Source: Trametopsis cervina
Lineage: Eukaryota > Basidiomycota > Agaricomycetes > Polyporales > Irpicaceae
Direction of reading: 5' to 3'
NCBI GenBank assembly: GCA_022385755.1
Contig: MU278380.1
Span: 130,035-140,989 of the forward strand
DNA: 10,955 bases
Made by a program: the position numbers and the translations under genes. A model generated the notes under the pieces. That model worked only from the letters and a program-made list of their open reading frames with translations, was not told the origin of the DNA and did no database searches. Below are positions 1 through 10,955 of this stretch, piece after piece. How positions within the stretch are numbered: the first letter of the stretch is position 1; each line of letters starts with the position of its first letter.

Positions 1-401
1 GCGGCAATGGTCGTGGATGGACGATCACGTGGGAAGCGATGGAGAAGAGCGAGTGCCGTGCGAGTGCTCGCAGCCGATGTGGGTGAACCACAAGCATGCA
101 ACACCCAAAATCTCGTTTGATCGACAAAGTCGACGCCACCGCGTGCGGCACCTCTCACCGCCAATTGCCTGCATTTCGCCCTGCCCCGGCTCTCTCGTCT
201 CTGCTTCTTTGCACGCCTGCTGGCGCGTCTCGCGTTCGTTTTTCCCCCGCACTGATTTCCCTCGCGCACTCGTTTTGCGCTCTGTTGTCGCCAGTCCCTC
301 GCGCTCTGACTCCCTCGAGCCCTTGCGCTCTGCCACGGTCACCCGCGCCCTCTCGGCTTTCGTTCCCGCGCTGTAACTCGTACATGGCTCGTTAATGGGA
401 A
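1..401. other. Left flank without a supported gene; pyrimidine-rich tract
   Basis: No gene is supported here. Bases 170-360 are strongly C+T rich on the + strand, with repeated ccctcg/ctctg words. This opens frames in several phases on both strands, none with domain-like composition. CT-rich stretches upstream of a start site are common in fungal promoters, so this may be upstream control sequence for the + strand transcript proposed below. That role is inference. Confidence 0.4.
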
Positions 402-403
402 TG

Positions 404-410
404 TATATAT
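404..410 (+). promoter_or_regulatory. TATA-like element
   Basis: The word tatatat is an isolated AT-rich island in an otherwise GC-rich flank. It lies about 50 bp before a good orphan splice donor (aag|gtacgt, donor at 461) and downstream of a CT-rich tract. This arrangement would fit a core promoter reading rightwards into the array. The evidence is positional only, and such a short word can occur by chance. Confidence 0.22.
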
Positions 411-460
411 TGTGTCTGGGATCTGTCGCGTGCGCGTCGTGGATTTGTGTCTACTACAAG

Positions 461-466
461 GTACGT
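461..466 (+). other. Orphan splice donor (gtacgt)
   Basis: The sequence aag|gtacgt matches the fungal donor consensus very well. Branch-like ctgat follows at 486-490. No convincing acceptor is near: candidates are the gag ending at 573 or the cag ending near 634, both inside the minisatellite. The first intron of a + strand transcript may start here, but its end cannot be fixed. Confidence 0.25.
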
Positions 467-519: not shown

Positions 520-706
520 CCTGCCCTCGTCGACTCATCCCTCAACATCGCCCTCTCGAACCTCTACTTTGAGTACACGACGCAACACGCCCCCTCAACC
601 TCAACCTCAAATACACGACGCCGTCATACCCTCAGCCTACCTCGAATACACGCCCTCAACCTCAACACCGAATACACGACGCGGTCATACCCTCAACCTC
701 GAACAT
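520..706. repeat. Degenerate minisatellite (tacacgacgc / ccctcaac words)
   Basis: Copies of a tacacgac word begin at about 574, 612, 647 and 673. They are separated by variants of gtcataccctcaacctcgaa, giving an irregular period of about 26-38 bp. The period is not constant, so overlapping frames here are not evidence of coding. It directly abuts the first 200-bp module at 701. Confidence 0.6.
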
Positions 707-714
707 TGCGGAGG

Positions 715-788
715 GTATGTTGGATGCGATCGCGCGTTCAACGCTTATCGTGAACCGCGCCCGATCGAATACTAATGTTATATACTAG
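715..788 (+). other. Candidate spliceosomal intron 1 (74 bp)
   Basis: Donor gtatgt at 715-720, perfect branch word tactaat at 770-776, acceptor tag at 786-788. The branch-to-acceptor spacing of about 13 nt is typical of fungal introns. It sits in the first 200-bp module. Splicing itself is not shown by the sequence. Confidence 0.6.
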
Positions 789-804
789 GTGCTGTAACTA
801 CCCT

Positions 805-852
805 ACTCCCTCTCCCTCGCCCTCTCCCTCGCCCTCTCCCTCGCCCTCGCTC
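805..852. repeat. 12-bp minisatellite (tccctcgccctc)
   Basis: About three and a half near-perfect copies of a 12-bp pyrimidine word lie just after the first candidate intron. It is absent at the matching place in the later modules, so it is a local expansion. All C+T on one strand. Confidence 0.85.
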
Positions 853-952
853 GTCGACACAAACGTCACGCGCAGTGTTCTAGCGCGGTCTCAAACCGTC
901 GCGAACATTGCAGATTGAACGCTGCATCGCGCACCGCGCTCGACGCTTCACG

Positions 953-1017
953 GTGAGTCCCCCGACGCAATCAAAATACATTTTATTCGGCTATACTGAC
1001 GTTCTACTACTCTATAG
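953..1017 (+). other. Candidate spliceosomal intron 2 (65 bp)
   Basis: Donor gtgagt at 953-958, branch word tactgac at 994-1000, acceptor tag at 1015-1017. The interior is AT-rich against GC-rich flanks, as expected of an intron. It is paralogous to the segment at 1170-1233. Confidence 0.65.
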
Positions 1018-1169
1018 ATGTAGTGCGCACACGACAACATCGACCCGCCGCGCAAACTGACACATCCCCCGCGCCCAATCTCACAGACCCGACACAAACA
1101 GCGCAGGACACTGCGCATTGAATGCTGAATAGCATACCGCGCTCGACATACCGCGCTCAACTCTTCACG

Positions 1170-1233
1170 GTAAGTCCTCCGACGCAATCAAATATATTTT
1201 ATTCAGCTATACTGATGTTCTACTAATCTATAG
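1170..1233 (+). other. Candidate spliceosomal intron 3 (64 bp)
   Basis: Donor gtaagt at 1170-1175, branch options tactgat at 1210-1216 and tactaat at 1221-1227, acceptor tag at 1231-1233. It aligns almost end to end with 953-1017. The donor change from gtgagt to gtaagt and the branch change from tactgac to tactgat both keep the splice consensus. Confidence 0.65.
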
Positions 1234-1355
1234 ATGTCGTGCGGCATCGCCGCTATCGGGCGCACACAACAACATCGACCCGCCGCGCATGCCGACACAT
1301 CCCCCCGCGCCCAACTTCACAGCACAGACACAAACCGTGCAGGACATTGCGGAGT

Positions 1356-1378
1356 GAATGCTGGATAAGCCAGCATTC
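1356..1378 (+). repeat. Perfect 9-bp stem hairpin, 5-nt loop
   Basis: gaatgctgg and ccagcattc form a perfect inverted repeat around the loop ataag. It marks the start of unit 1. A copy with one G.T wobble lies at 4259-4281, a decayed version near 1119-1133, and unit 3 has lost it. No known RNA hairpin family is recognised. Confidence 0.85.
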
Positions 1379-1461
1379 TATCGCGCATGTCCCGCTATGC
1401 ACGCGCTGTAGCCGACACCACCGCCCACCTCATCGGCTCGGTAACCGCCCCTACATGTCAA

Positions 1462-1531
1462 GTACAACGTCTTTTTATCCCTCCTTCACCCCTACTAATC
1501 AATTAAAGTTCACGTCCCCTTGCACGCACAG
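1462..1531 (+). other. Candidate intron, class A, unit 1 (70 bp)
   Basis: The donor is weak (gtacaa) where unit 2 has gtaaga. Branch word tactaat at 1493-1499 is perfect and the acceptor cag ends at 1531. Length equals that of the unit 2 copy (70 bp). The donor may have decayed. Confidence 0.45.
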
Positions 1532-2118
1532 TAGCCCTCAAGATCAAATTCAATTCAAACTACCGACATCAATACAAGCGTGCGAATGGCGCGTCAACGG
1601 CGACGACGGCGGGCCGTGCGGAGACGACCCCGCATCACCATTCTCAACACAGCCATCACGCCGCCTTCCCCGCCTTCCCCACATCCCCGCAACAACGGCG
1701 ACGACGCCCTCCTCCGACGTCTCACGCACGGTCTGTCCTACTCACGACGACGACGACGGCGCCGACGCCGACGTGCCGCTGCCGTCCCTCGACCATCTGC
1801 GACGGCGCACACACCACGCGCGCAAACGACACACGCGTCGGTTGACACTCGACGCCGCCGACGTCTGTGAGCAAACGACGACGACGCTTAGCAAGCGGCG
1901 ACGACGACAGACGGACGGATGGACTCACGCGGGGAGGGCTGCGTCAGACGTCTGCGCGCCGTGCGGGACTGCGAGCAAGACACATGGGGCGGCGAGGATG
2001 ACGACGACAGCACGAGGAGCAGGAGCAGGAGCGGGGGAGACGACGACGACGGCGACGAGGGCGAAATGGAGAGGGGAACAGCAGAAGAAGGGAGGGAGGG
2101 AACGATGAGGAGGTGAGG
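1532..2118. other. cga/gac-rich stretch between introns A and B, unit 1
   Basis: This 587-bp stretch is rich in cga/gac triplets, with pure runs near 1743-1757 and 2038-2056. Long frames are open across it in several phases, encoding Arg-, Asp-, Thr- or Ser-rich low-complexity strings. Aligned stretches in units 2 and 3 are open in different frames and differ by indels that are not multiples of three. I see no supported gene. Confidence 0.55.
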
Positions 2119-2256
2119 GTGAGTGTCCCATCCATTCTCCTCCCCTCGCTCATCTTTATACCTCCTCGCACACCTTCCATCACCTAACTCTCACCCTCCC
2201 AAGCGAGATCCTAACGCCCCATCTCCCTCCCTCCTTCCTTCCCCCTTCTCTCGAAG
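2119..2256 (+). other. Candidate intron, class B, unit 1 (138 bp)
   Basis: Donor gtgagt at 2119-2124 (an overlapping gtgagg at 2113 is possible), branch ctaac at 2211-2215, a long pyrimidine tract, and an aag acceptor ending at 2256. Copies in units 2 (121 bp) and 3 (138 bp) have better acceptors (ttcag, ctag). Confidence 0.5.
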
Positions 2257-2288
2257 ACCCAGACCCAGACGCGCGCTCCGACCCCCGT

Positions 2289-2323
2289 CATCAATCGTCA
2301 GCCGCGTCGACATCAATCGTCAT
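2289..2323 (+). repeat. Core motif pair catcaatcgtca, unit 1
   Basis: Two copies of catcaatcgtca (2289 and 2311) lie about 22 bp apart, followed by ccggcagcacac. The same pair with the same follow-on occurs at 5215/5235 and 7929/7949. It sits about 33-36 bp after the acceptor of the class B intron in every unit. Confidence 0.85.
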
Positions 2324-2741
2324 CCGGCAGCACACACACACATGCGCGCGCGCGGTCGGTGGGTGGTATGACGACCGATTGGGTGCGGTGTATTTGGATT
2401 TGGATTGCCGGGGATGGATTACGAGACGAGACGAGGGCGGGATGGTTGGGTGCGAGGGGATGAAGGGGACATGACGGGCGAGTGGGGATTTGGGTGTGCG
2501 TGCGCACAGACGAAAGACGGACGGAGCGGAGCGCGATCTGTGTCTGTAGACCGCAGGAGGTGCACGCCGCGCCGTGCACTCAGGAAACGACGACGCACCG
2601 CGCCGCGTGAATCAGACAGAACGCATGCACGCCGACGTCGACGTCGAACGCAACTCGCTCGAGTGCTCAGGCCATCGGGATCGCAGCAACAGCAACCAGA
2701 CGACGCTCCCCTCCATCCGCCTGCCTCTCCCCTCTCCGCCT

Positions 2742-2773
2742 ACCTCACCTCACCTCACCTCACCTCACCTCAC
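2742..2773. repeat. Pentanucleotide microsatellite (acctc)n
   Basis: About six perfect tandem copies of acctc. The aligned place in unit 2 (near 5670-5690) has only scattered tcacctc words, so this is a recent local expansion in unit 1. Confidence 0.9.
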
Positions 2774-2852
2774 ACCGCAAACTCGACTCGACGGCACACA
2801 AACAGATTCACTCACGCACCCTGACGGCGTTCCGACCCCCTGCGCTCCGCCT

Positions 2853-3422
2853 CATCAATCGTCAGTCGGCAGTCGTTGCGAGGGAACGAGGCGAGGGGCG
2901 TCGCTTGCGTGGTGTGGTGTGGTGTGTAGATGCTGACAGGCGGGTTGTGTTGGCAGGGTCAGGGTCGGATTGGCGGAAGAGGGCAGCGCGGAGAAGGGCA
3001 GTGCGTCCTCGCCTGGGCAAGCCTGGGGACGGCGAGGGCGGGAAATGGTCAATTGCGGCGGCCGTCGACTTACGCGGAGAACTCGATGGAGGACGAGACG
3101 GACGGACGGACCGCGGCGTCGGTCTTTGCGCACAGTCTGCGCTGCTGCAGACGGGCAGCGCGCACTCAGGAAACGACGGCATCCCATTACGCAACGACAC
3201 AGCCGCCCCCAGCGCACCCAGCACTCGACTCGGCTCGTCGCAGCGTCACGACGGAGTCGAGAACGCTTGGGAAGTCGACATCTGACGGATCGACTCCAGC
3301 TCTCGACGCGGAGTTGAAGACCGGGGGGTTTCAAACGGTCAAACCCCAGGCCTCAAGCCTCGCTCAGTACACCGCGGGCAAGTCAAATGACAGCAATAGA
3401 CGGCGCGGAGCCGACGTCCCTC
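2853..3422. other. Monomer with core motif, branch-like site and exon-like part, unit 1
   Basis: Core motif catcaatcgtcag at 2853 is followed by a tg-rich tract, ctgac at about 2935, acceptor-like ttggcag near 2957, then ggtcgga, gagggcagcgcg and gcgcactcaggaaacgacg. The matching places in units 2, 3 and 4 are at 5766, 8464 and 9534. Only unit 3 has an unambiguous donor (gtaagt at 8480). Frames open on both strands here are low-complexity and not shared between units. Confidence 0.5.
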
Positions 3423-3474
3423 GTGAGTACTCGCCCTTATTCCAACGCGTCGGACACGGCTGAACGACTCCTAG
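3423..3474 (+). other. Candidate intron, class C, unit 1 (52 bp)
   Basis: Donor gtgagt at 3423-3428, branch ctgaac at 3460-3465, acceptor tag at 3472-3474. The flanking words gacgtc and accgcgtgc are kept in other copies (6362-6416; 8827-8880 and 9861-9955 in part). The intron interior is clearly more diverged than the splice signals. Confidence 0.6.
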
Positions 3475-3574
3475 ACCGCGTGCCGACCATCCTCATCAAT
3501 CGTCAGACTACCGTCAATCGTCAACCGCTAACCCCGTCGCTCGGCAGCGAGTTCTCAGACTCAGGCACGCAAAG

Positions 3575-3628
3575 GTGCGTGCGTATCGCGTTCATTGATC
3601 GTAGTGACGACTGACGATTTGCGCACAG
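3575..3628 (+). other. Candidate intron, class D, unit 1 (54 bp)
   Basis: Donor gtgcgt at 3575-3580, branch ctgac at 3611-3615, acceptor cag at 3626-3628. It aligns with 9011-9064 (also 54 bp) and 10063-10123. In unit 2 only the donor side survives, because a deletion removed the rest. Confidence 0.6.
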
Positions 3629-4258
3629 TTGCGCTGTTGTGGTAGATCCCCGGAGGATGACGCTTCGAGGGCAGCACGCGCCTGGGGATGCTTGTGCGCA
3701 ACGGCGGGGAACGAGTCGTTGCGGCATCCGTCGACGACTCACGCGGACTGCGTTGTCGTTTGCACGCAGCGACCCTTGGGCGAGATGGAAAGGATGGGCT
3801 GCGCCGTCGGTCCTTGCACTCGGTCTGCGCGGCAGGAAATGAGTGGCACGCACTCAGTGCAGCCAGACGGCGGCATCGCATAGTCACACACCCAAACCCC
3901 AGGCCGCCGCGGTGAATCAGGCTGCACGGATTCAGCTCGACCAGTTGACGGGACGAGACGAGTGCCCAGGGAATCAGCGGCGAGTCAACGCTTGGTGCTG
4001 TCTGCCTGACGCACCAGGGCCGCACACGCACGCTTGCCCTGACGCACCGCGTCTCGCCTGTGTCAACTCATACCGCGGACTTGGCGATTGAACGGCATGC
4101 GCACTCACACACCCTCACGGCATCCCAATCGACCACGGCACCTACCTCCACGCCTCCGCATCAATCGCCAGTCCGACATCAATCGTCAAGTCTATCGCTC
4201 GGGTATGGTCGCGTGCGATAACACGGCGCAACACAGAACGCGCAGAGGGTTGCGAATT

Positions 4259-4281
4259 GAATGCTGGATAAGCCGGCATTC
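4259..4281 (+). repeat. Hairpin, unit 2 copy
   Basis: gaatgctgg and ccggcattc pair with one G.T wobble around the loop ataag. It differs by one base from the perfect copy at 1356-1378. It is bracketed by direct cgcgca words at 4239-4244 and 4285-4290, which explain its loss in unit 3. Confidence 0.8.
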
Positions 4282-4364
4282 TATCGCGCAAGTCTCGTGG
4301 ATCCCCCGCTGTAGCCGACACTGCCACCCGCTTCATTGACTCGGAAACCGCGCTTTCACATCGG

Positions 4365-4434
4365 GTAAGACGTCTCTGTGTTTCCCTTTCAACAGTACTA
4401 ATAAAATAAGGTTCTCACCCCCTTGCGCGTGCAG
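4365..4434 (+). other. Candidate intron, class A, unit 2 (70 bp)
   Basis: Donor gtaaga at 4365-4370, perfect branch word tactaat at 4396-4402, acceptor tgcag ending at 4434. The acceptor is followed at once by gtacgc, a donor-like word. This is the best-preserved class A copy. Confidence 0.65.
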
Positions 4435-4763
4435 GTACGCTCAAGATACAATTAGATTACAATCGTAAATACACATGCGCAAACAGAACGCGCAGAAGCG
4501 ACCCAGCAGCATCACCCTCAACACGGCCGCCGTCAGGTCACCTTCCCCGCATTCCCCACATCTCCGTGCCGACGGCAATATCCTCCTCTGACGTCGCATG
4601 CACTGTCCGTCCTCGGGACGACAATGACGGCGCCGACAACGACTCGCCGACCCTCTCGACGCGCAAGCACCATCCGCGACGGCGCACCCGCCACGCGCAT
4701 CAAACGACACACGCTGCGCGCGCAGCGTATGCGTCTCAGACCACGACGGCGACGAGCAAGCGG

Positions 4764-4803
4764 CGGCGGTGGTCAGCAAACGACGGCGGTGGTCAACAAA
4801 CGA
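4764..4803. repeat. 20-bp tandem duplication
   Basis: cggcggtggtcagcaaacga is followed directly by the same word with one base changed (tcaaca for tcagca). It is found only in unit 2. Confidence 0.85.
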
Positions 4804-4960
4804 CGACGGCGGCGTGGAGCGACAGACGGGACGACTCACGCGGGGAGCAACGCGTCAGACGGACGTGTGCCGTGCGGGACCGTGGGCAAGACACGAGGCG
4901 ACGACGACGGCAGAACGAGGAGAGGGGGAGGGGGGAGACAACGACGGCGAGGAAGAGGTG

Positions 4961-5038
4961 AAGGAGGGGAGAGTGTACACGATAGCAGAGGGGGAGAAGA
5001 AGGAGGGGAGAGTGTACACGATAGCAGAGGGGGAGAAG
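4961..5038. repeat. Perfect 39-bp tandem duplication, unit 2
   Basis: The word aaggaggggagagtgtacac and what follows repeats exactly with a period of 39 bp (4961 and 5000). It is absent from the matching places in unit 1 (about 2065-2110) and unit 3 (about 7700-7755). Identity of the two copies implies a recent event. 39 is a multiple of three, so a frame passing through is kept, but no frame here is shared with other units. Confidence 0.95.
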
Positions 5039-5059
5039 AAGCGAGCCAGCGATGAGGAG

Positions 5060-5180
5060 GTGAGTACCATGTCCCTTCTCGTCCCACTCACCCCCCTCTG
5101 TATCGTCTTCCCCTTCGCCCTCACGCACCACAACCGAGATACTGACGTCCCCTCTCTCTCCCCTTTCTTCTTTTCTTCAG
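5060..5180 (+). other. Candidate intron, class B, unit 2 (121 bp)
   Basis: Donor gtgagt at 5060-5065, branch word tactgac at 5140-5146, a strong polypyrimidine tract, and acceptor ttcttcag ending at 5180. The acceptor is directly followed by gtacgc. This is the textbook-quality intron of the window and fixes the + strand as the sense strand of the array. Confidence 0.7.
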
Positions 5181-5214
5181 GTACGCGCTCCTGCCGACCT
5201 TCGCGTGCTCCCCT

Positions 5215-5247
5215 CATCAATCGTCAGACGTCGTCATCAATCGTCAT
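5215..5247 (+). repeat. Core motif pair catcaatcgtca, unit 2
   Basis: Copies at 5215 and 5235, then ccggcagcacacgcgcgc. Matches 2289/2311 and 7929/7949. About 50 bp further on, ggtatgacgaccgac and gattgccgggg are also shared with unit 1. Confidence 0.85.
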
Positions 5248-6183
5248 CCGGCAGCACACGCGCGCGCACTTAGATGCAGGTACGCGCGGTGGTATGACGA
5301 CCGACATCGACTGGGTTAGCTGGATTGCCGGGGAATGACGAGAGTGGGATACGTGATTGGGATACGCAAGGGGATGGCGGGAACGTGGCAGGCGGCGAGC
5401 AGGCGAGTGGAAGCCTGGGCGTGGAACGGACGACGCGGGCGCACGAGACACGCACAGAACGCGGTCTGCAGGCAACAGGAAGTGCGCAGCGCGCACTCAC
5501 GAGACGGCGGCGTCGCACAACGACGCCCCGCATGGATCAGACTGCACACCGACGTCGGACGCAGCTAAGCCCGTCAACGAGCCCAGTGTTCAACTCATCG
5601 ACATCGCAGCGATGAGTCGACGCTCCCTTCCATCCGCCCGACGCCTGACGCACACACGCCCGACTCTCCGCCTGCATCACCTCACCCCACAACCGCAGAC
5701 TGTACGGCATGCAAACTCACTCACTCACCCACCCTGACGGCGTTCCGATCCTCTGCGCTCCGACTCATCAATCGTCAGTCGGCAGTCGTCGCGAGGGAAC
5801 GAGGCGAAGGGCGTCGCTTGTGTGTGGTGTGGCGTGTGGTGTGGTGTGTAGAGGCTGACGGGCTGTGTTGGCAGGGTCGGATTCGCGGAGGAGGGCAGCG
5901 CGCCCTCGCTGATGCATGCCCGGGGATGGTGACGGCGCGAACAAGTGGTTGCGGCGGCCATCGACTCGCGTGGACTTGCGCAGACAGAACGAGGGAGGGC
6001 GAGACGGATGAGACGGACGGACTGTGTCGGTCGGTCGGTATGTGCTGCCGCAGACGGTACGAGGCGAGCACGACTCGTTCAGGAAACGGCGTCGCACAAC
6101 GACGCGCGAAAAATCCGACTCACAATGCGCGCCACACTCACCTCAGCCGGTGGACAGAGTGTCGGCGTTGCATGTACAGATCA

Positions 6184-6239
6184 GTGAGTCGACGTCTGAA
6201 TTGTATTCTGACGGATTCCCTCTCAACCACTTGCCTCAG
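6184..6239 (+). other. Candidate intron in unit 2 only (56 bp)
   Basis: Donor gtgagt at 6184-6189, branch word ttctgac at 6206-6212, acceptor cctcag ending at 6239. The related gtgagtcgg at 9861 in unit 4 begins a similar segment. Unit 1 has gaagtcgac in place of the donor, so it lacks one. Confidence 0.5.
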
Positions 6240-6361
6240 TTCACGACGCGGACTTGCCGGCAACAGGGTTCTCGAACGGACAAACCCCAGGCCTCAAGCC
6301 TCGCTCGCCATACCGCGGACATGTCGGACGACGGCAATCGATGGCGTGGAGCCGACGTCTT

Positions 6362-6416
6362 GTGAGTACACACCACGCTGTTCCAACGCGTCGGGACACT
6401 GCTGAATGATCCATAG
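6362..6416 (+). other. Candidate intron, class C, unit 2 (55 bp)
   Basis: Donor gtgagt at 6362-6367, branch gctgaat at 6401-6407, acceptor tag at 6414-6416. Flanks gacgtc and accgcgtgccgacc match unit 1. Confidence 0.6.
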
Positions 6417-7761
6417 ACCGCGTGCCGACCCTCCTCATCAATCGTCAGCCCGCCGTCAATCGTCAACCGCCAACCGCCAACCGCGTCGCTCGGCAGCGAG
6501 TTCTCAGACCCAGGGACGCAAGGGTGAGTGCGTATTACGTTGTCGTTTGTGCGCAAACGACCCTTTGACGAGAAGGGAAGGATAGGCCGCGTCGGTCAGT
6601 CTTTGCACGCGGTCTGTGCGGCAAGAGAAGAGTAACACGTACTCAGAGCAGCCAGACAGCAGCATCGCATAGTCAGGCAGTCAGGCAGCCGATGTGAACC
6701 AGGCTGCACGGACTCAGCTCGGTCGGTTGACGGGACGAGACGAATGCTCAAGGCACAGGCGCAGCGGTGAGCCGACGCTTAACCCCGTCTGCCTGACGCA
6801 CCACGGACACGGACGCACCTGCCCTGACGCACCGCCTCTCGCCTGTGTCAACTCACACCGCGGACTTGACGACAGCATGCGCACTCATTCGCCTACTCAC
6901 GGCATTCCTATCGACCGCGGCACCTACCTCTACGCCTCCTCATCAATTGGCAACCTGTCGTCACTTGTCAAGTCTATCACTTGGGTATGGTCGCGTGCGA
7001 TAACACGAAGCAACGCAGAACGCGCAAGTCTCGTCGATCACCCACTGCAGCCGACACTGCCACCCGCCTTATTGACTCGGAAACCGTGCCTTCACATCGG
7101 GTAAGATGTCTGTCTCTGTATTTCACCTTCAACTGTACTAATTAAATAAGATTCTCACCCCCTTGCGCGCGCCGTTACCGTCAAGATTAAACTGAATGCA
7201 AATCTTCCGATTCCGATGTAAATACAAATGCGCACAAGGCACGACAACGACGACGGGCCATGCGGAGACGACCCCGCATCATCACTCTCAACACGGCGGT
7301 GACGTCGCGTTCCCCGCATTTCCCACATCTCCGCGTCAACAGCAATACCTTCCTTTGACGTCGCATGCACGGTCTGTTCTCAGCACAACAATGACGGCGC
7401 CGAGGACGACTCGCCGTCTCTCTCGACGCGCAAGCACCATCCGCGACGGCGCACCCGCCACGCGCACAAACGACACAACGCGGCGCGCGCAGCATATGCG
7501 TCTCAGACAACGACGGCGACCAGAAAACGCCGGCAGTGGTCAGCAAACGCGGCGTGCAGCGACAGACGAAATGACTCACGCGGGGAGTGCTGTGTCAGAC
7601 AGACGTGTGCCGTGAGGGACTGCGAGCAAGACTCACGAGGTGGCGACGACGGCAGGATGAGGAGCGGGGACAGGGGAGATAACGACGACGAGGGACATAT
7701 GGGGAAGGGGAGATCATGCACGACAGCAGAACGAGGGAAGGAGGACGAGATCAGGCAGCAA

Positions 7762-7899
7762 GTGAGTGTCCTATCCATTCTCGTTCCCCCCGCCCGCCTT
7801 TGTGCATCGCCCCCTTCCTCACCCTCACATTTCCCAAGCGAGATCCTGACGTCCCCTTCCTCCTTCTCCTTCGCTCCCTCCTTCCCTCTTCCCTTCTAG
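7762..7899 (+). other. Candidate intron, class B, unit 3 (138 bp)
   Basis: Donor gtgagt at 7762-7767, branch cctgac at 7845-7850, a pyrimidine-rich stretch, and acceptor tctag ending at 7899. Same length as the unit 1 copy. Confidence 0.6.
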
Positions 7900-7928
7900 A
7901 TGCGCGTTCCGACCGCCGCGTGCCCCCT

Positions 7929-7961
7929 CATCAATCGTCAGCCGTCGTCATCAATCGTCGT
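7929..7961 (+). repeat. Core motif pair, unit 3
   Basis: catcaatcgtcag at 7929 and catcaatcgtcg at 7949, then ccggcagcgcacgcgcgcg. Same spacing as in unit 2. Confidence 0.85.
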
Positions 7962-8479
7962 CCGGCAGCGCACGCGCGCGCGTTCTCAGACGCAGGTACG
8001 CGCGGTGGTATGATGATCGACGCCGACTGGGTGAGCTGAATTGCCGGGGGATGACGAGGGAATGGCGAGAAGATGACAGGCGGAGAGTGGGCGAGTGGGA
8101 GCTTGGGCATGGGATGGACGACCCGTGCACACGATACACGGACGGAACGCGGTCTGTAGACAACAGAAGATGCGCGGCGCGCACTCAGGAGACGGCGGAG
8201 TCGCACAACGACACACCGCATGAATCAAGCTTTACGCCGACGTCAGGCGCAACTAAGCCCGTCGACGAGCCAAGTGCTCAACTCATCGACACCGCAGCGA
8301 CGAGTCGACGCACCCAGGACACACACACACGCCTGCCCTGACGGATCGCGTGCCTCAAGTCACACCACAGCCTTGACGGACGACTGAACGGCAGGCTCTC
8401 TCACTCACACTCACGGCATTCCGATCGACCGTGTCACCCTGCCTCCGCGCTCCGCCTCTGCCTCAACAGTCGTCAGCCG

Positions 8480-8540
8480 GTAAGTCCGTCACGAGGGTCG
8501 TCGCTTGGGTGCGGTGGGGACTGACAATTTACGCTGCTAG
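8480..8540 (+). other. Candidate intron in monomer 2 of unit 3 (61 bp)
   Basis: Donor gtaagt at 8480-8485, branch gactgac ending at 8525, acceptor gctag ending at 8540. Aligned places in units 1 and 2 keep ctgac and ggcag but have no consensus donor. Unit 4 has lost the branch word (ctgcc). Confidence 0.55.
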
Positions 8541-8826
8541 GGTGGGTCGTATTCGCGGAGGAGGGCGGCACGCGCTGACTGATGCACGCATGGGGATGGC
8601 TACGGCGATGAACAAGGGCCGTCGTCGACTCTCGCGGACTTGCGCAGAAGACCATTGGGAGGATGAGGTGAGATAGACAGGCCGCGTCGACTGCCGTTGC
8701 GAGCAGCTTGCGCTGCTCCAGATGGCGAGAGGCGAGCACCATGCGCCCAGGAAACGGCGTCGCTCAATGGCCTCTCTCGCCGCAAGTCAGAGGACGGCAT
8801 CCAACCGCGCGGACTCGACGTCTCTC

Positions 8827-8880
8827 GTGAGTGTACATGGCGTTATCTAAATGCGTCGGGCACGACTGAATGATCTACAG
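8827..8880 (+). other. Candidate intron, class C, unit 3 (54 bp)
   Basis: Donor gtgagt at 8827-8832, branch gactgaat around 8865-8872, acceptor tctacag ending at 8880. The acceptor changed from tag to cag, and both fit the consensus. Confidence 0.6.
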
Positions 8881-8910
8881 ACCATCTCCCCCATCAATCG
8901 TCGTTCAGCC

Positions 8911-8965
8911 GTCAATCGTCAACCGTCAACCGTCAACCGTCAACCGTCAACCGACAACCGTCAAG
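8911..8965. repeat. 7-bp microsatellite (gtcaacc)n
   Basis: gtcaatc, then five perfect gtcaacc units, one gacaacc, and a partial copy. The same site has far fewer copies in unit 1 (3509), unit 2 (about 6450) and unit 4 (about 10002). The unit word resembles the tail of the core motif, so expansion probably began inside it. Confidence 0.9.
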
Positions 8966-9010
8966 CCCCTCGCTTGGCAGCAAGTTCAGGCTCAGGGACG
9001 CGACGCGAAG

Positions 9011-9064
9011 GTGCGTGTACATTGCGTTGATTCGGCGTGGTAGCGACTGACGATTCACGTGCAG
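9011..9064 (+). other. Candidate intron, class D, unit 3 (54 bp)
   Basis: Donor gtgcgt at 9011-9016, branch ctgac at 9047-9051, acceptor gtgcag ending at 9064. It is followed directly by gtgcgctgttgtggtagat, shared with unit 1. Same length as 3575-3628. Confidence 0.6.
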
Positions 9065-9860
9065 GTGCGCTGTTGTGGTAGATTCCCGAAGAATGGTGTT
9101 AGCAGAGCAGCGCGCACCCTCGTCAATGCACGCCTGGGGATTCTTGTGCGACGGCTGGGAACGAGTAGTAGCGGCATTCCCTTGACGGCTCGCACAGACT
9201 CCGTCGTCATTTGCGTGCAACAACCTTTGGCGAGTGGAGACCGATGGACTGTGTCAGTCGGTCCTTGCACGCGGTCTGCACAGCAGGGGAAGAGTGGCAA
9301 GCACTCAGGGTAGCGAGACGGGCTGAGCTCGATCGGTCGACGGGACGTCGGCGTAGCAGCGGTGAGTCGACGCTAGATTCCGTCTGCCTGACGCTCTCCA
9401 GGGCCACACCAGCCACGCCTGCCCTGACGCACCGCCTCTTCACTTGCATCACATCACAACGCGACGGTGCACTCATCCACTCTCACGGCATTCCGATTCC
9501 GTTCGCCGTTGCGCCGACTGCCACGCTTCCCCTCATCAATCGTCATTCGGCAAATCCGTCGCAAGGGAGCGGGGTGCGTCGTTTAGGTGTTTGGTGGAGG
9601 CTGCCGGATTGTGGTGCTAGGGTCGGATTCCCGGAAGAGGGCAGCGCGCCCTCAGCGAGGGCGAGGGGGAGAGACGGGTGGTTGTGGCATATGTTGACTT
9701 GCATGGACTTCCCAGTCGTCTGTGCGCGGACGACCTCAGGAGGGATGAATGGACCGCGTTGCGCAGTCGGTTCTTGCGCACGGTGCAGACGATAGCGAGC
9801 GCGCACTGAAAGTACAGTACCCAGGCAATGTTGTCGCATTGCGACGTCTGAGAACGACAA

Positions 9861-9955
9861 GTGAGTCGGCACTCCAGCTCTGTCAGTCTGACGGTGTCCG
9901 AGAACACACACCCCTACGTCAGTGTACGCGTCGGGCATAGCTGAACACTTCACAG
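9861..9955 (+). other. Candidate intron, class C, unit 4 (95 bp or shorter)
   Basis: Donor gtgagt at 9861-9866, branch gctgaac near 9940-9945, acceptor cacag ending at 9955. The donor that aligns with other class C copies is gtcagt at 9918-9923, giving 38 bp, probably too short. Use of the upstream donor would merge two intron positions into one. Confidence 0.4.
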
Positions 9956-10062
9956 ACCGCGTGCTGATCGCGCCCTACCCCTCCACATCAATCGTCAGCC
10001 CGCCGTCAATCATCAACCGCCAAGTGTGTCGCTCAGCAGCAAGCCCAGCCCAGGGACGCGAG

Positions 10063-10123
10063 GTGCGTGCATATCGCACTGATTGGGTATGCTGTTGACT
10101 GACGGTCTGCGTTGCTGTGGTAG
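10063..10123 (+). other. Candidate intron, class D, unit 4 (61 bp)
   Basis: Donor gtgcgt at 10063-10068 and branch actgac at 10098-10103. The acceptor used in units 1 and 3 is missing. The next candidate is gtggtag ending at 10123, a word present downstream of the acceptor in units 1 and 3 too. Confidence 0.45.
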
Positions 10124-10260
10124 ATTGCTAGAGCATGACGTTGCGAGGGCAGCATGCCCTCAGTGAAGCACATCCGGGCAAGGCTATGCGTGACAGCTAT
10201 GGCGGGGAACGGGTGGTTTAGACGGCATGGAGGGGTATCTGATGACGAGATCGAGCAGTG

Positions 10261-10439
10261 GCGGGAAGTAGATTTTGATGTCTGTATCTCAGATTCAATG
10301 GCAAAGTGAGGGAGTGCACGGATAGACACACAAGTGAACTGACAGTCAAAGCATGTTATATTGCAGGCAGTAAGTAGTGTACATTATAGGTAGATACATA
10401 TATTACTTCATAGCTACGGGACACTTATGTCTTCACTGC
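10261..10439. other. Unique spacer, no gene seen
   Basis: The sequence becomes AT-richer than the array, and no array word is recognisable. Both strands contain many stops. I see no RNA gene. Confidence 0.5.
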
Positions 10440-10442
10440 AGC

Positions 10443-10558
10443 GGGACTCTTACTTACTCCCTTGAATCACGCCCAGGGGACTGTTACTTATGCACTCAAA
10501 CTATGTCTCTTACTTACTCTCTTAGACCATGTCTCTTACTTATTCTCTTAAACCATGC
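10443..10558. repeat. 26-bp minisatellite (cttactta-type)
   Basis: Two clear copies of ccatgtctcttacttactct plus cttaga lie at 10501-10526 and 10527-10552, with a partial third from 10553. More diverged copies with cttacttac or gttactta lie at about 10447 and 10482. It begins just past the stop codon of the - strand gene, so it would fall in that gene's 3' untranslated or downstream region. Confidence 0.75.
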
Positions 10559-10559
10559 C

Positions 10560-10955
10560 TTACCCACGAATTCCATCGTCACAAATCTGTGTGCTGTCAA
10601 TCGTCAGCACATCTCGCCCCACCCTGCGAAGCGAGCATCAATATCAGTTAGCTGCACGCGCACGCGCACCCGCGCCCGCGCCAAACAAACAAACAGAACT
10701 CGGAAACAGAACAAACACGCACCATAGCAACATCTCCGTCGTCCACTCCATAGACACACTCTGCGACGACGACGTGCGCTCGTGAGGAGCAGAATGGAGG
10801 TGGCTGCGAATCGTGCGTGCAGAGGTCCCAGGCTCAAAGTCGCATTCGCCCTCTTCCGCCGCACAAGAGAAGAGCGAGAACAAGAATGAGTCAGCTTCGA
10901 TGTTGATTCGGACAGGCGTGCGCGAAGCACAGACAAGGTGTGGAAACGAGTACGC
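10560..10955 (-). CDS. 3' end of an unrecognised protein gene, two exons, 5' end outside the window
   Basis: On the - strand a frame is open from the window edge. Joining 10955-10723 to 10623-10560 across an intron gives 98 residues and a TAA stop at 10562-10560. The first exon ends with two bases (TG) of a codon completed by the first G of the second exon, making Trp, so the frame runs cleanly through the junction. The protein end has mixed composition, unlike the array frames: it includes RINIEADSFLFSLFSCAAEE, a Ser-rich part, MEWTTEMLLW and DVLTIDSTQICDDGIRG. No domain is recognised and no membrane segment is clear; the FLFSLFSC stretch is short. The frame near the window edge could instead lie partly in another intron. 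The gene is convergent with the array. The intron model and frame are seen; the gene call is inference. Confidence 0.5.
10624..10722 (-). other. Intron in the - strand gene (99 bp)
   Basis: Read on the - strand: donor gtgcgt (10722-10717), overlapping branch options ctaac and actgat, acceptor ttcgcag ending at 10624. Unspliced, the frame reads on into GT-rich and GC-alternating sequence and stops at about 10644. Spliced, it continues 21 more residues. The interior holds a gcgcac/gcgccc tract and a caaa run (+ strand). Confidence 0.55.

What the first reader, a model, noticed from the sequence alone, without database searches (positions are those of the whole stretch)
701..10260. Nested repeat array that keeps splice signals but no reading frame
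Seventeen + strand segments with donor, branch and acceptor signals fall into about seven unrelated classes, and several classes recur at matching places in two to four units. Four carry or include tactaat and others tactgac. The piece between class C and class D introns measures 100, 107, 130 and 107 nt, so no frame can be conserved. This suggests spliced noncoding RNAs made from a repeat array, a combination I cannot match to a known family. Caution: copies of one class are not independent, and donor-branch-acceptor trios arise by chance in GC-rich DNA.
Basis: partly seen in the sequence, partly recalled or inferred. Interest (0 to 1): 0.75.

Follow-up and report, generated by a model that had tools for sequence, protein, structure and literature searches.

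The report
Decaying spliced noncoding repeat-gene array
In a wood-decay fungus, a repeated stretch of DNA looks like an old gene made of many small introns and exons that codes for no protein; a second, very different copy elsewhere in the same genome shows the same kind of intron signals on the same strand, so it was probably once, and perhaps still is, spliced into a noncoding RNA, but nobody has yet shown that it is transcribed.

Summary
The window (probably Trametopsis cervina, Polyporales) has three and a half units of a 2.5-2.9 kb repeat, built of ~600 bp subunits, all on one strand, 66-71% identical. With a splice model trained on 18 introns of other genes of the genome, the + strand holds 15 non-overlapping introns at score >=14 (shuffle mean 3.6; 0 of 60 reach it); the - strand is at chance from 16 up. 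New: a second, diverged array on scaffold C24, collinear at its 5' and 3' ends with a different middle repeat, shows the same sense-strand excess (0 of 60); pieces lie on C40, C42 and C47. Donors are kept between copies more often than in a neutral simulation (32 of 47 against 14; 0 of 100); acceptors hardly (30 against 25; 7 of 100). Several copies have lost a donor or acceptor: it is decaying. No coding signal: no phase bias, indels not in threes, no Pfam match in six frames. Best reading: a small lineage-specific family of spliced noncoding transcription units, amplified in tandem and partly dead. A dead protein gene cannot be excluded; both loci end in a shared SDDEIEQW stretch. No RNA data were available.

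The parts
1..95 (.). Y: edge of a repeat Z; identical to the first 95 bases after the downstream gap
403..462 (+). TATA-like stretch and possible first exon ending AAG|GTACGT (start of the transcription unit, inferred)
   Evidence: read directly; transcription not tested
715..788 (+). candidate intron class A (GTATGT..TACTAAT..TAG)
   Evidence: score 14.0
953..1017 (+). candidate intron class B, copy 1
   Evidence: score 20.3
1170..1233 (+). candidate intron class B, copy 2
   Evidence: score 20.8
1356..1378 (+). exonic hairpin GAATGCTGG-ATAAG-CCAGCATTC; present in 4 of the 7 aligned exon copies (U1, U2, C24, second C47 copy)
   Evidence: fold z -5.55
1318..4230 (+). repeat unit U1
4231..7020 (+). 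repeat unit U2
7021..9471 (+). repeat unit U3 (lacks the hairpin exon)
9472..10260 (+). partial repeat unit U4
1462..1531 (+). class C in U1 (weak donor GTACAA; TACTAAT; CAG)
4365..4434 (+). class C in U2
7101..7174 (+). class C in U3, acceptor lost (CCG)
2119..2256 (+). class D in U1 (GTGAGT kept in U1, U2, U3 and C24)
5060..5180 (+). class D in U2
7762..7899 (+). class D in U3
3423..3474 (+). class E in U1
6362..6416 (+). class E in U2
8827..8880 (+). class E in U3
9900..9955 (+). class E in U4, donor lost (GAGAAC), acceptor kept
3575..3628 (+). class F in U1; its branch region CTGACGATT is the reverse complement of nine of the twelve motif bases
9011..9064 (+). class F in U3
10063..10123 (+). 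class F in U4 (nearest TAG after a deletion; the scan chose an end at 10133)
6524..6535 (+). class F donor in U2, rest of the intron deleted
8480..8540 (+). candidate intron class G in U3; no GT at the matching place in U1, U2, U4
9362..9412 (+). candidate intron class H in U3 (GCGAGT in U1, GTGAGC in U2)
2290..10607 (+). 14 copies of motif ATCAATCGTCAG (<=1 mismatch), starting at 2290, 2312, 2854, 3495, 4160, 4178, 5216, 5236, 5767, 6437, 7930, 9535, 9987, 10596; none on the - strand, none inside the 17 introns
10227..10261 (+). 3' remnant; 10238-10261 reads SDDEIEQW, shared with the end of the C24 array
10462..10640 (+). 3' tail with weak collinear similarity to C24, 26-bp repeats (10484-10557) and a last motif copy
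10731..10862 (.). 132 bp 100% identical (reverse) to part of C25:4746-4877
10861..10955 (.). X: edge of repeat Z; identical to the 95 bases before the upstream gap

Best explanation
The window holds one member of a small family of multi-exon, non-protein-coding transcription units of Trametopsis cervina. A unit with short host-type introns was amplified in tandem (subunit ~600 bp, then 2.5-2.9 kb units) and the locus was duplicated (C24); the two copies later amplified different middle parts. Shown: direct repeats, sense-strand intron excess at two loci, donor retention above neutral, no coding signal found, a strand-specific exon motif and a 5' hairpin. Inferred: transcription by RNA polymerase II from about 400-460 rightwards, splicing of the intact introns, and an RNA that displays up to 14 copies of AUCAAUCGUCAG, best read as a many-site binding platform. 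Several units have lost signals, so the locus is at most partly active and is decaying.
For: Sense-strand intron excess in the window and on C24: 0 of 60 shuffles each at every threshold from 12 to 19. Introns predicted in one copy and looked up in the others: donor kept in 32 of 47 pairs against a neutral mean of 14.1 (0 of 100), both ends 18 against 7.8 (0 of 100) (threshold 14). On introns picked by hand in classes B-F, donor letters agree in 178 of 210 pairwise cells, acceptor letters in 66 of 105, interiors in 1247 of 2261, exon flanks in 852 of 1750 (my sums; picking favours donors). GTGAGT of class D and TACTAAY of class C are kept between window and C24, where the surroundings are ~60% alike. 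Codon phase: 1 of 67 blocks at p<0.05; gaps of up to 30 in threes 16 of 55, 6 of 39, 14 of 54. No Pfam match at E<=0.1 in the six frames. Motif 14 forward, 0 reverse; hairpin z -5.55.
Against: No RNA data. Acceptors: 30 of 47 against a neutral mean of 25.0, reached by 7 of 100 simulations (16 of 100 at threshold 13), and 9 of 14 on the antisense control, the same rate. Donors against antisense: 34 of 50 to 14 of 37 at threshold 12 (p 0.009), but 32 of 47 to 6 of 14 at threshold 14 (p 0.12); copies are not independent. A plain hexamer test shows little: GTRNGT fully kept in 14 of 41 pairs, reverse-complement control 21 of 101, base identity 0.73 against 0.71. Antisense of C24 is reached by only 3, 5, 6 and 3 of 60 shuffles at 12, 14, 15 and 16, so some excess there is not strand-bound. 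Three class C-F copies in the window and one on C40 have lost an end. The spliced model has a 268-aa ORF, reached by 5 of 100 mononucleotide shuffles (model ran 5 nt past the last acceptor); the fifth-longest open stretch of the + strand is reached by 4 of 100. No single fold of the exon-F region beats its shuffles clearly (z +0.60 to -1.24).
Confidence: 0.5

Rival explanations
1. A dead protein gene: a multi-exon coding gene was duplicated in tandem and lost its frame long ago; its introns are fossils whose signals are not yet worn away.
For: Window 10238-10261 and the end of the C24 open frame both read SDDEIEQW with one synonymous change in 24 bases; the C24 frame is a recorded protein (P0080). 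Several splice signals are broken; acceptors are not kept above neutral.
Against: Donors kept above neutral; no phase bias; no Pfam match in six frames; the 142-aa C24 frame finds only its own record (1 hit at E<=10 among 16 candidates) and the 289-aa window frame none at E<=1 (4879 candidates); these searches need shared five-residue words.
Confidence: 0.3
2. A mobile or gene-fragment-gathering element: the array is the body of a transposon or of duplicated junk that picks up gene pieces.
For: A piece of an S4-domain gene, with its intron, lies in the C24 array (78% match; S4 E 4.9e-9 on the C29 gene; E 0.042, under cut-off, in the C24 frame); bestrophin-like pieces adjoin the C47 module; 132 bp identical to C25 and a repeat Z adjoin the window; the C42 piece adjoins a long open frame that I recall as transposase-like (no Pfam match over cut-off).
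Against: Array or pieces at five places only (lower bounds); no Pfam match in the window; intron classes B, C and D recur in loci with different neighbours, so they belong to the array and not to the captured pieces. Common ends were not tested, since gaps lie beside several copies.
Confidence: 0.15
3. Chance donor-branch-acceptor trios multiplied by duplication.
For: Copies of one class are not independent; at low score the antisense strand has as many trios, and antisense is above most shuffles at >=15 in the window and at 12-16 on C24.
Against: Scores of 17 and more: 6 sense and 0 antisense in the window, 6 and 1 on C24, whose middle repeats differ.
Confidence: 0.05

Closest known systems
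SNORD116 host gene (116HG) and similar tandem-unit noncoding host genes of mammals
   Same: Tandem units with exons and introns, spliced noncoding exons (start of the abstract of PMC3792690; the rest recalled)
   Different: Introns here are 51-138 nt, and nothing reaches an Rfam gathering score (weak archaeal C/D box hits lie on the - strand)
Repeat-bearing regulatory lncRNAs such as Xist and roX (recalled)
   Same: A short motif many times in a noncoding RNA; roX also has complementary copies
   Different: Function unknown here; the complementary copies lie in candidate introns, and their pairing is not conserved as a fold
Long intergenic noncoding RNAs of Ganoderma lucidum (PMC4059649; abstract start and found passages seen)
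   Same: Same order of fungi
   Different: The words tandem and repeat do not occur in its main text
Tandemly duplicated pseudogenes
   Same: Divergent direct copies, broken signals
   Different: Donors kept above a neutral simulation, no coding trace but the SDDEIEQW end

Membership tests
Spliced long noncoding RNA gene | Transcribed and spliced | not testable with these tools
   No RNA data held
Spliced long noncoding RNA gene | Host-type introns above chance, on one strand | tested here: met
   0 of 60 shuffles at two loci; antisense at chance only from 16 (window) or 17 (C24) upwards
Spliced long noncoding RNA gene | No conserved coding frame | tested here: met
   exception: 8-residue 3' remnant
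Spliced long noncoding RNA gene | Splice signals under constraint | tested here: inconclusive
   donors yes, acceptors not clearly; weak
snoRNA host gene | Known snoRNA in introns | tested here: not met
   11 matches at E<=5, none at its gathering score
Protein-coding gene or recent pseudogene | Phase bias, indels in threes, domain or homologue | tested here: not met
Transposable element | Several copies and a transposase or reverse transcriptase | tested here: not met
   few, diverged copies, no Pfam match in the window; a non-autonomous element would also look so
Transposable element | Common termini and target-site duplications | not tested
   gaps lie beside the window, C24 and C40 copies

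The most novel reading that the evidence does not exclude
A fungal, lineage-specific family of spliced noncoding RNAs whose exons carry a many-copy motif (AUCAAUCGUCAG) of which nine of twelve bases (eleven on C24) are the reverse complement of the branch region of its own downstream F introns, so that the RNA could mask its own or its siblings' branch points and so set how much of the array is spliced.
Probability: 0.1. Interest if true: 0.75.

Novelty: new variant of a known kind. Interest (0 to 1): 0.45.

Why it matters
Noncoding genes have few marks by which to find them in DNA alone. Two diverged arrays that share splice signals and little else would be a test case for recognising spliced noncoding genes in fungi without RNA data, and for how such genes amplify and die. 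If the exon motif really mirrors its own branch sites, it would be a simple, testable self-regulating splicing system.

Tried and rejected
Conserved exon-intron pairing: consensus fold -4.8 kcal/mol with 15 pairs, none of them between motif and F branch; single folds z +0.60 to -1.24; the motif-branch helix is seen in the folds of U1 and C24 only, though two of the five stretches folded were cut before or inside the branch region. Not supported as conserved structure. Rfam: nothing at gathering score. Subterminal transposase motif: the motif is one-strand (14 forward, 0 reverse). Z as long terminal repeats: Z's left copy begins at what reads as an intron acceptor of a GH18-like gene (Pfam match under cut-off) and the inside has no Pfam match; not pursued further. 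Bestrophin family PF01062: rang nowhere, controls included, so uninformative; the C37 gene matches Bestrophin_2 PF25539. Protein relatives: neighbour P450 for kinship (79 hits), C24 frame (itself only), window frame (none at E<=1). Hairpin-exon pattern in viral contigs: none. Papers: six searches; no title or abstract start in these listings describes such an array; I opened passages of one paper only (PMC4059649).
Full report
What the window is. It lies at G000:C33:130035-140989 of an unnamed 29.4 Mb assembly in 59 contigs. A frame of the related array on C24 is 100% identical, over 87% of its length, to a recorded protein of Trametopsis cervina, so the source is that fungus or one very near it. 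The window stands between runs of 1635 and 1660 N, and its two 95-base ends recur across the opposite gaps: most simply, one collapsed repeat Z lies on both sides, about 1.8 kb long if the gap sizes are right.

The array. Unit matches are all direct: U1, U2, U3 and a partial U4, 66-71% identical. Each unit repeats a subunit marked by CTCATCAATCGTCAG: with up to one mismatch the whole genome has 15 places, 9 of them in the window, all on the + strand, one on C40, two on C24 and three scattered. The shorter ATCAATCGTCAG with up to one mismatch has 14 forward and 0 reverse copies in the window, 0 in 26.5 kb of flanks, and in ten shuffles 0 forward and one reverse in total.

Introns. A scoring model from 18 introns of other genes of the genome (lengths 47-75) finds an excess of strong introns on the sense strand of the window and of C24 (60 shuffles each). 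The antisense strands are at chance only for the best scores: in the window at 15, 2 of 60 shuffles reach the antisense count; on C24 3, 5, 6 and 3 of 60 at 12, 14, 15 and 16. The gene-bearing stretch L053 gives a similar yield on its gene strand (6 at >=17), but ten of the 18 training introns come from it.

Constraint. Introns predicted in one copy, without picking by eye, were looked up at the matching place in the others (threshold 14): donors 32 of 47, acceptors 30 of 47, both 18 of 47; neutral simulation 14.1, 25.0, 7.8; antisense 6, 9, 4 of 14. So donors are kept, acceptors are not clearly kept. The simulation takes one divergence rate per pair of copies. A plain hexamer count gives a weaker picture. 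Copies share history, so the counts overstate the number of independent events.

The paralogue. A search with the C47 piece led to C24. Read in sense, C24 has the hairpin exon, intron C (GTAAGTACAACTGAC..TACTAAC..CACAG), a CGACG-rich exon, intron D with GTGAGT, a CATCAATCGTCAG exon and an F-like intron, in the order of the window. Then follows a different repeat of its own (65-72% identical copies) with strong introns, then an open frame ending SDDEIEQWSEGGAE, then a tail weakly collinear with the window's. C42 holds a piece of the C24-type middle and none of the window's at E<=0.01, C40 a piece with introns E and F, C47 the 5' module.

Not coding. Phase test: 1 of 67 blocks below 0.05; gap lengths not in threes. 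The longest open stretch is ordinary on both strands (33 and 92 of 100 shuffles reach it), the fifth-longest on the + strand is long (4 of 100). No Pfam match in six frames. The exception is the SDDEIEQW end, which may be a true coding trace.

How it may work. Shown: signals, their sense-strand excess, donor retention, motif and hairpin (4 of 7 exon copies). Inferred: transcription from the TATA-like stretch at 403-409, splicing, and an RNA with many motif copies. Eight copies lie 21-56 nt downstream of a class D or E acceptor (2290, 2312, 3495, 5216, 5236, 6437, 7930, 9987; the last behind the E copy without a donor); the other six lie 123-598 nt from a listed acceptor. CTGACGATT, the reverse complement of nine motif bases, forms the branch region of intron F at 3611 and 9047 and recurs on C40 and C24; U4 differs (CTGACGGTC). 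Pairing is possible but not conserved as a fold.

Verdict. It is best called a family of decaying spliced noncoding transcription units, with a dead protein gene as the main rival. RNA reads would settle it.

Noticed in passing
window 1-95 and 10861-10955; L006:8271-8365; L007:1661-1755: Both 95-base window ends recur across the opposite assembly gaps, pointing to a collapsed direct repeat Z on both sides; its left copy starts at what reads as an intron acceptor of a GH18-like gene.
   Followed up: partly
window 10731-10862: 132 bp 100% identical (reverse) to a piece of an open coding-like stretch on C25:4746-4877.
   Followed up: partly
L051:2540-2940 (- strand): Piece of an S4-domain gene (relative on C29, L058) with its intron lies inside the C24 array.
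   Followed up: partly
L009:5282-6130: The 5' module of the array sits between pieces resembling the bestrophin gene of C37 (L053); the pieces themselves give no Pfam match.
   Followed up: partly
L051:1488-1913 (- strand): 142-aa open frame at the end of the C24 array, recorded in T. cervina, with no other hit in the protein collection.
   Followed up: yes
window 4960-5041: Perfect 39-bp tandem duplication, 2.1 copies, in an array that is otherwise about 30% diverged.
   Followed up: no
L009:4896-5117; C42:88714-88922: The same dispersed repeat lies 5' of the array pieces on C47 and C42.
   Followed up: no
window 2275-2328 and 5198-5252 (- strand): Weak Rfam matches to archaeal C/D box RNAs at matching places of U1 and U2, far under the gathering score; the - strand of the motif reads CTGA..TGATGA.
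   Followed up: partly
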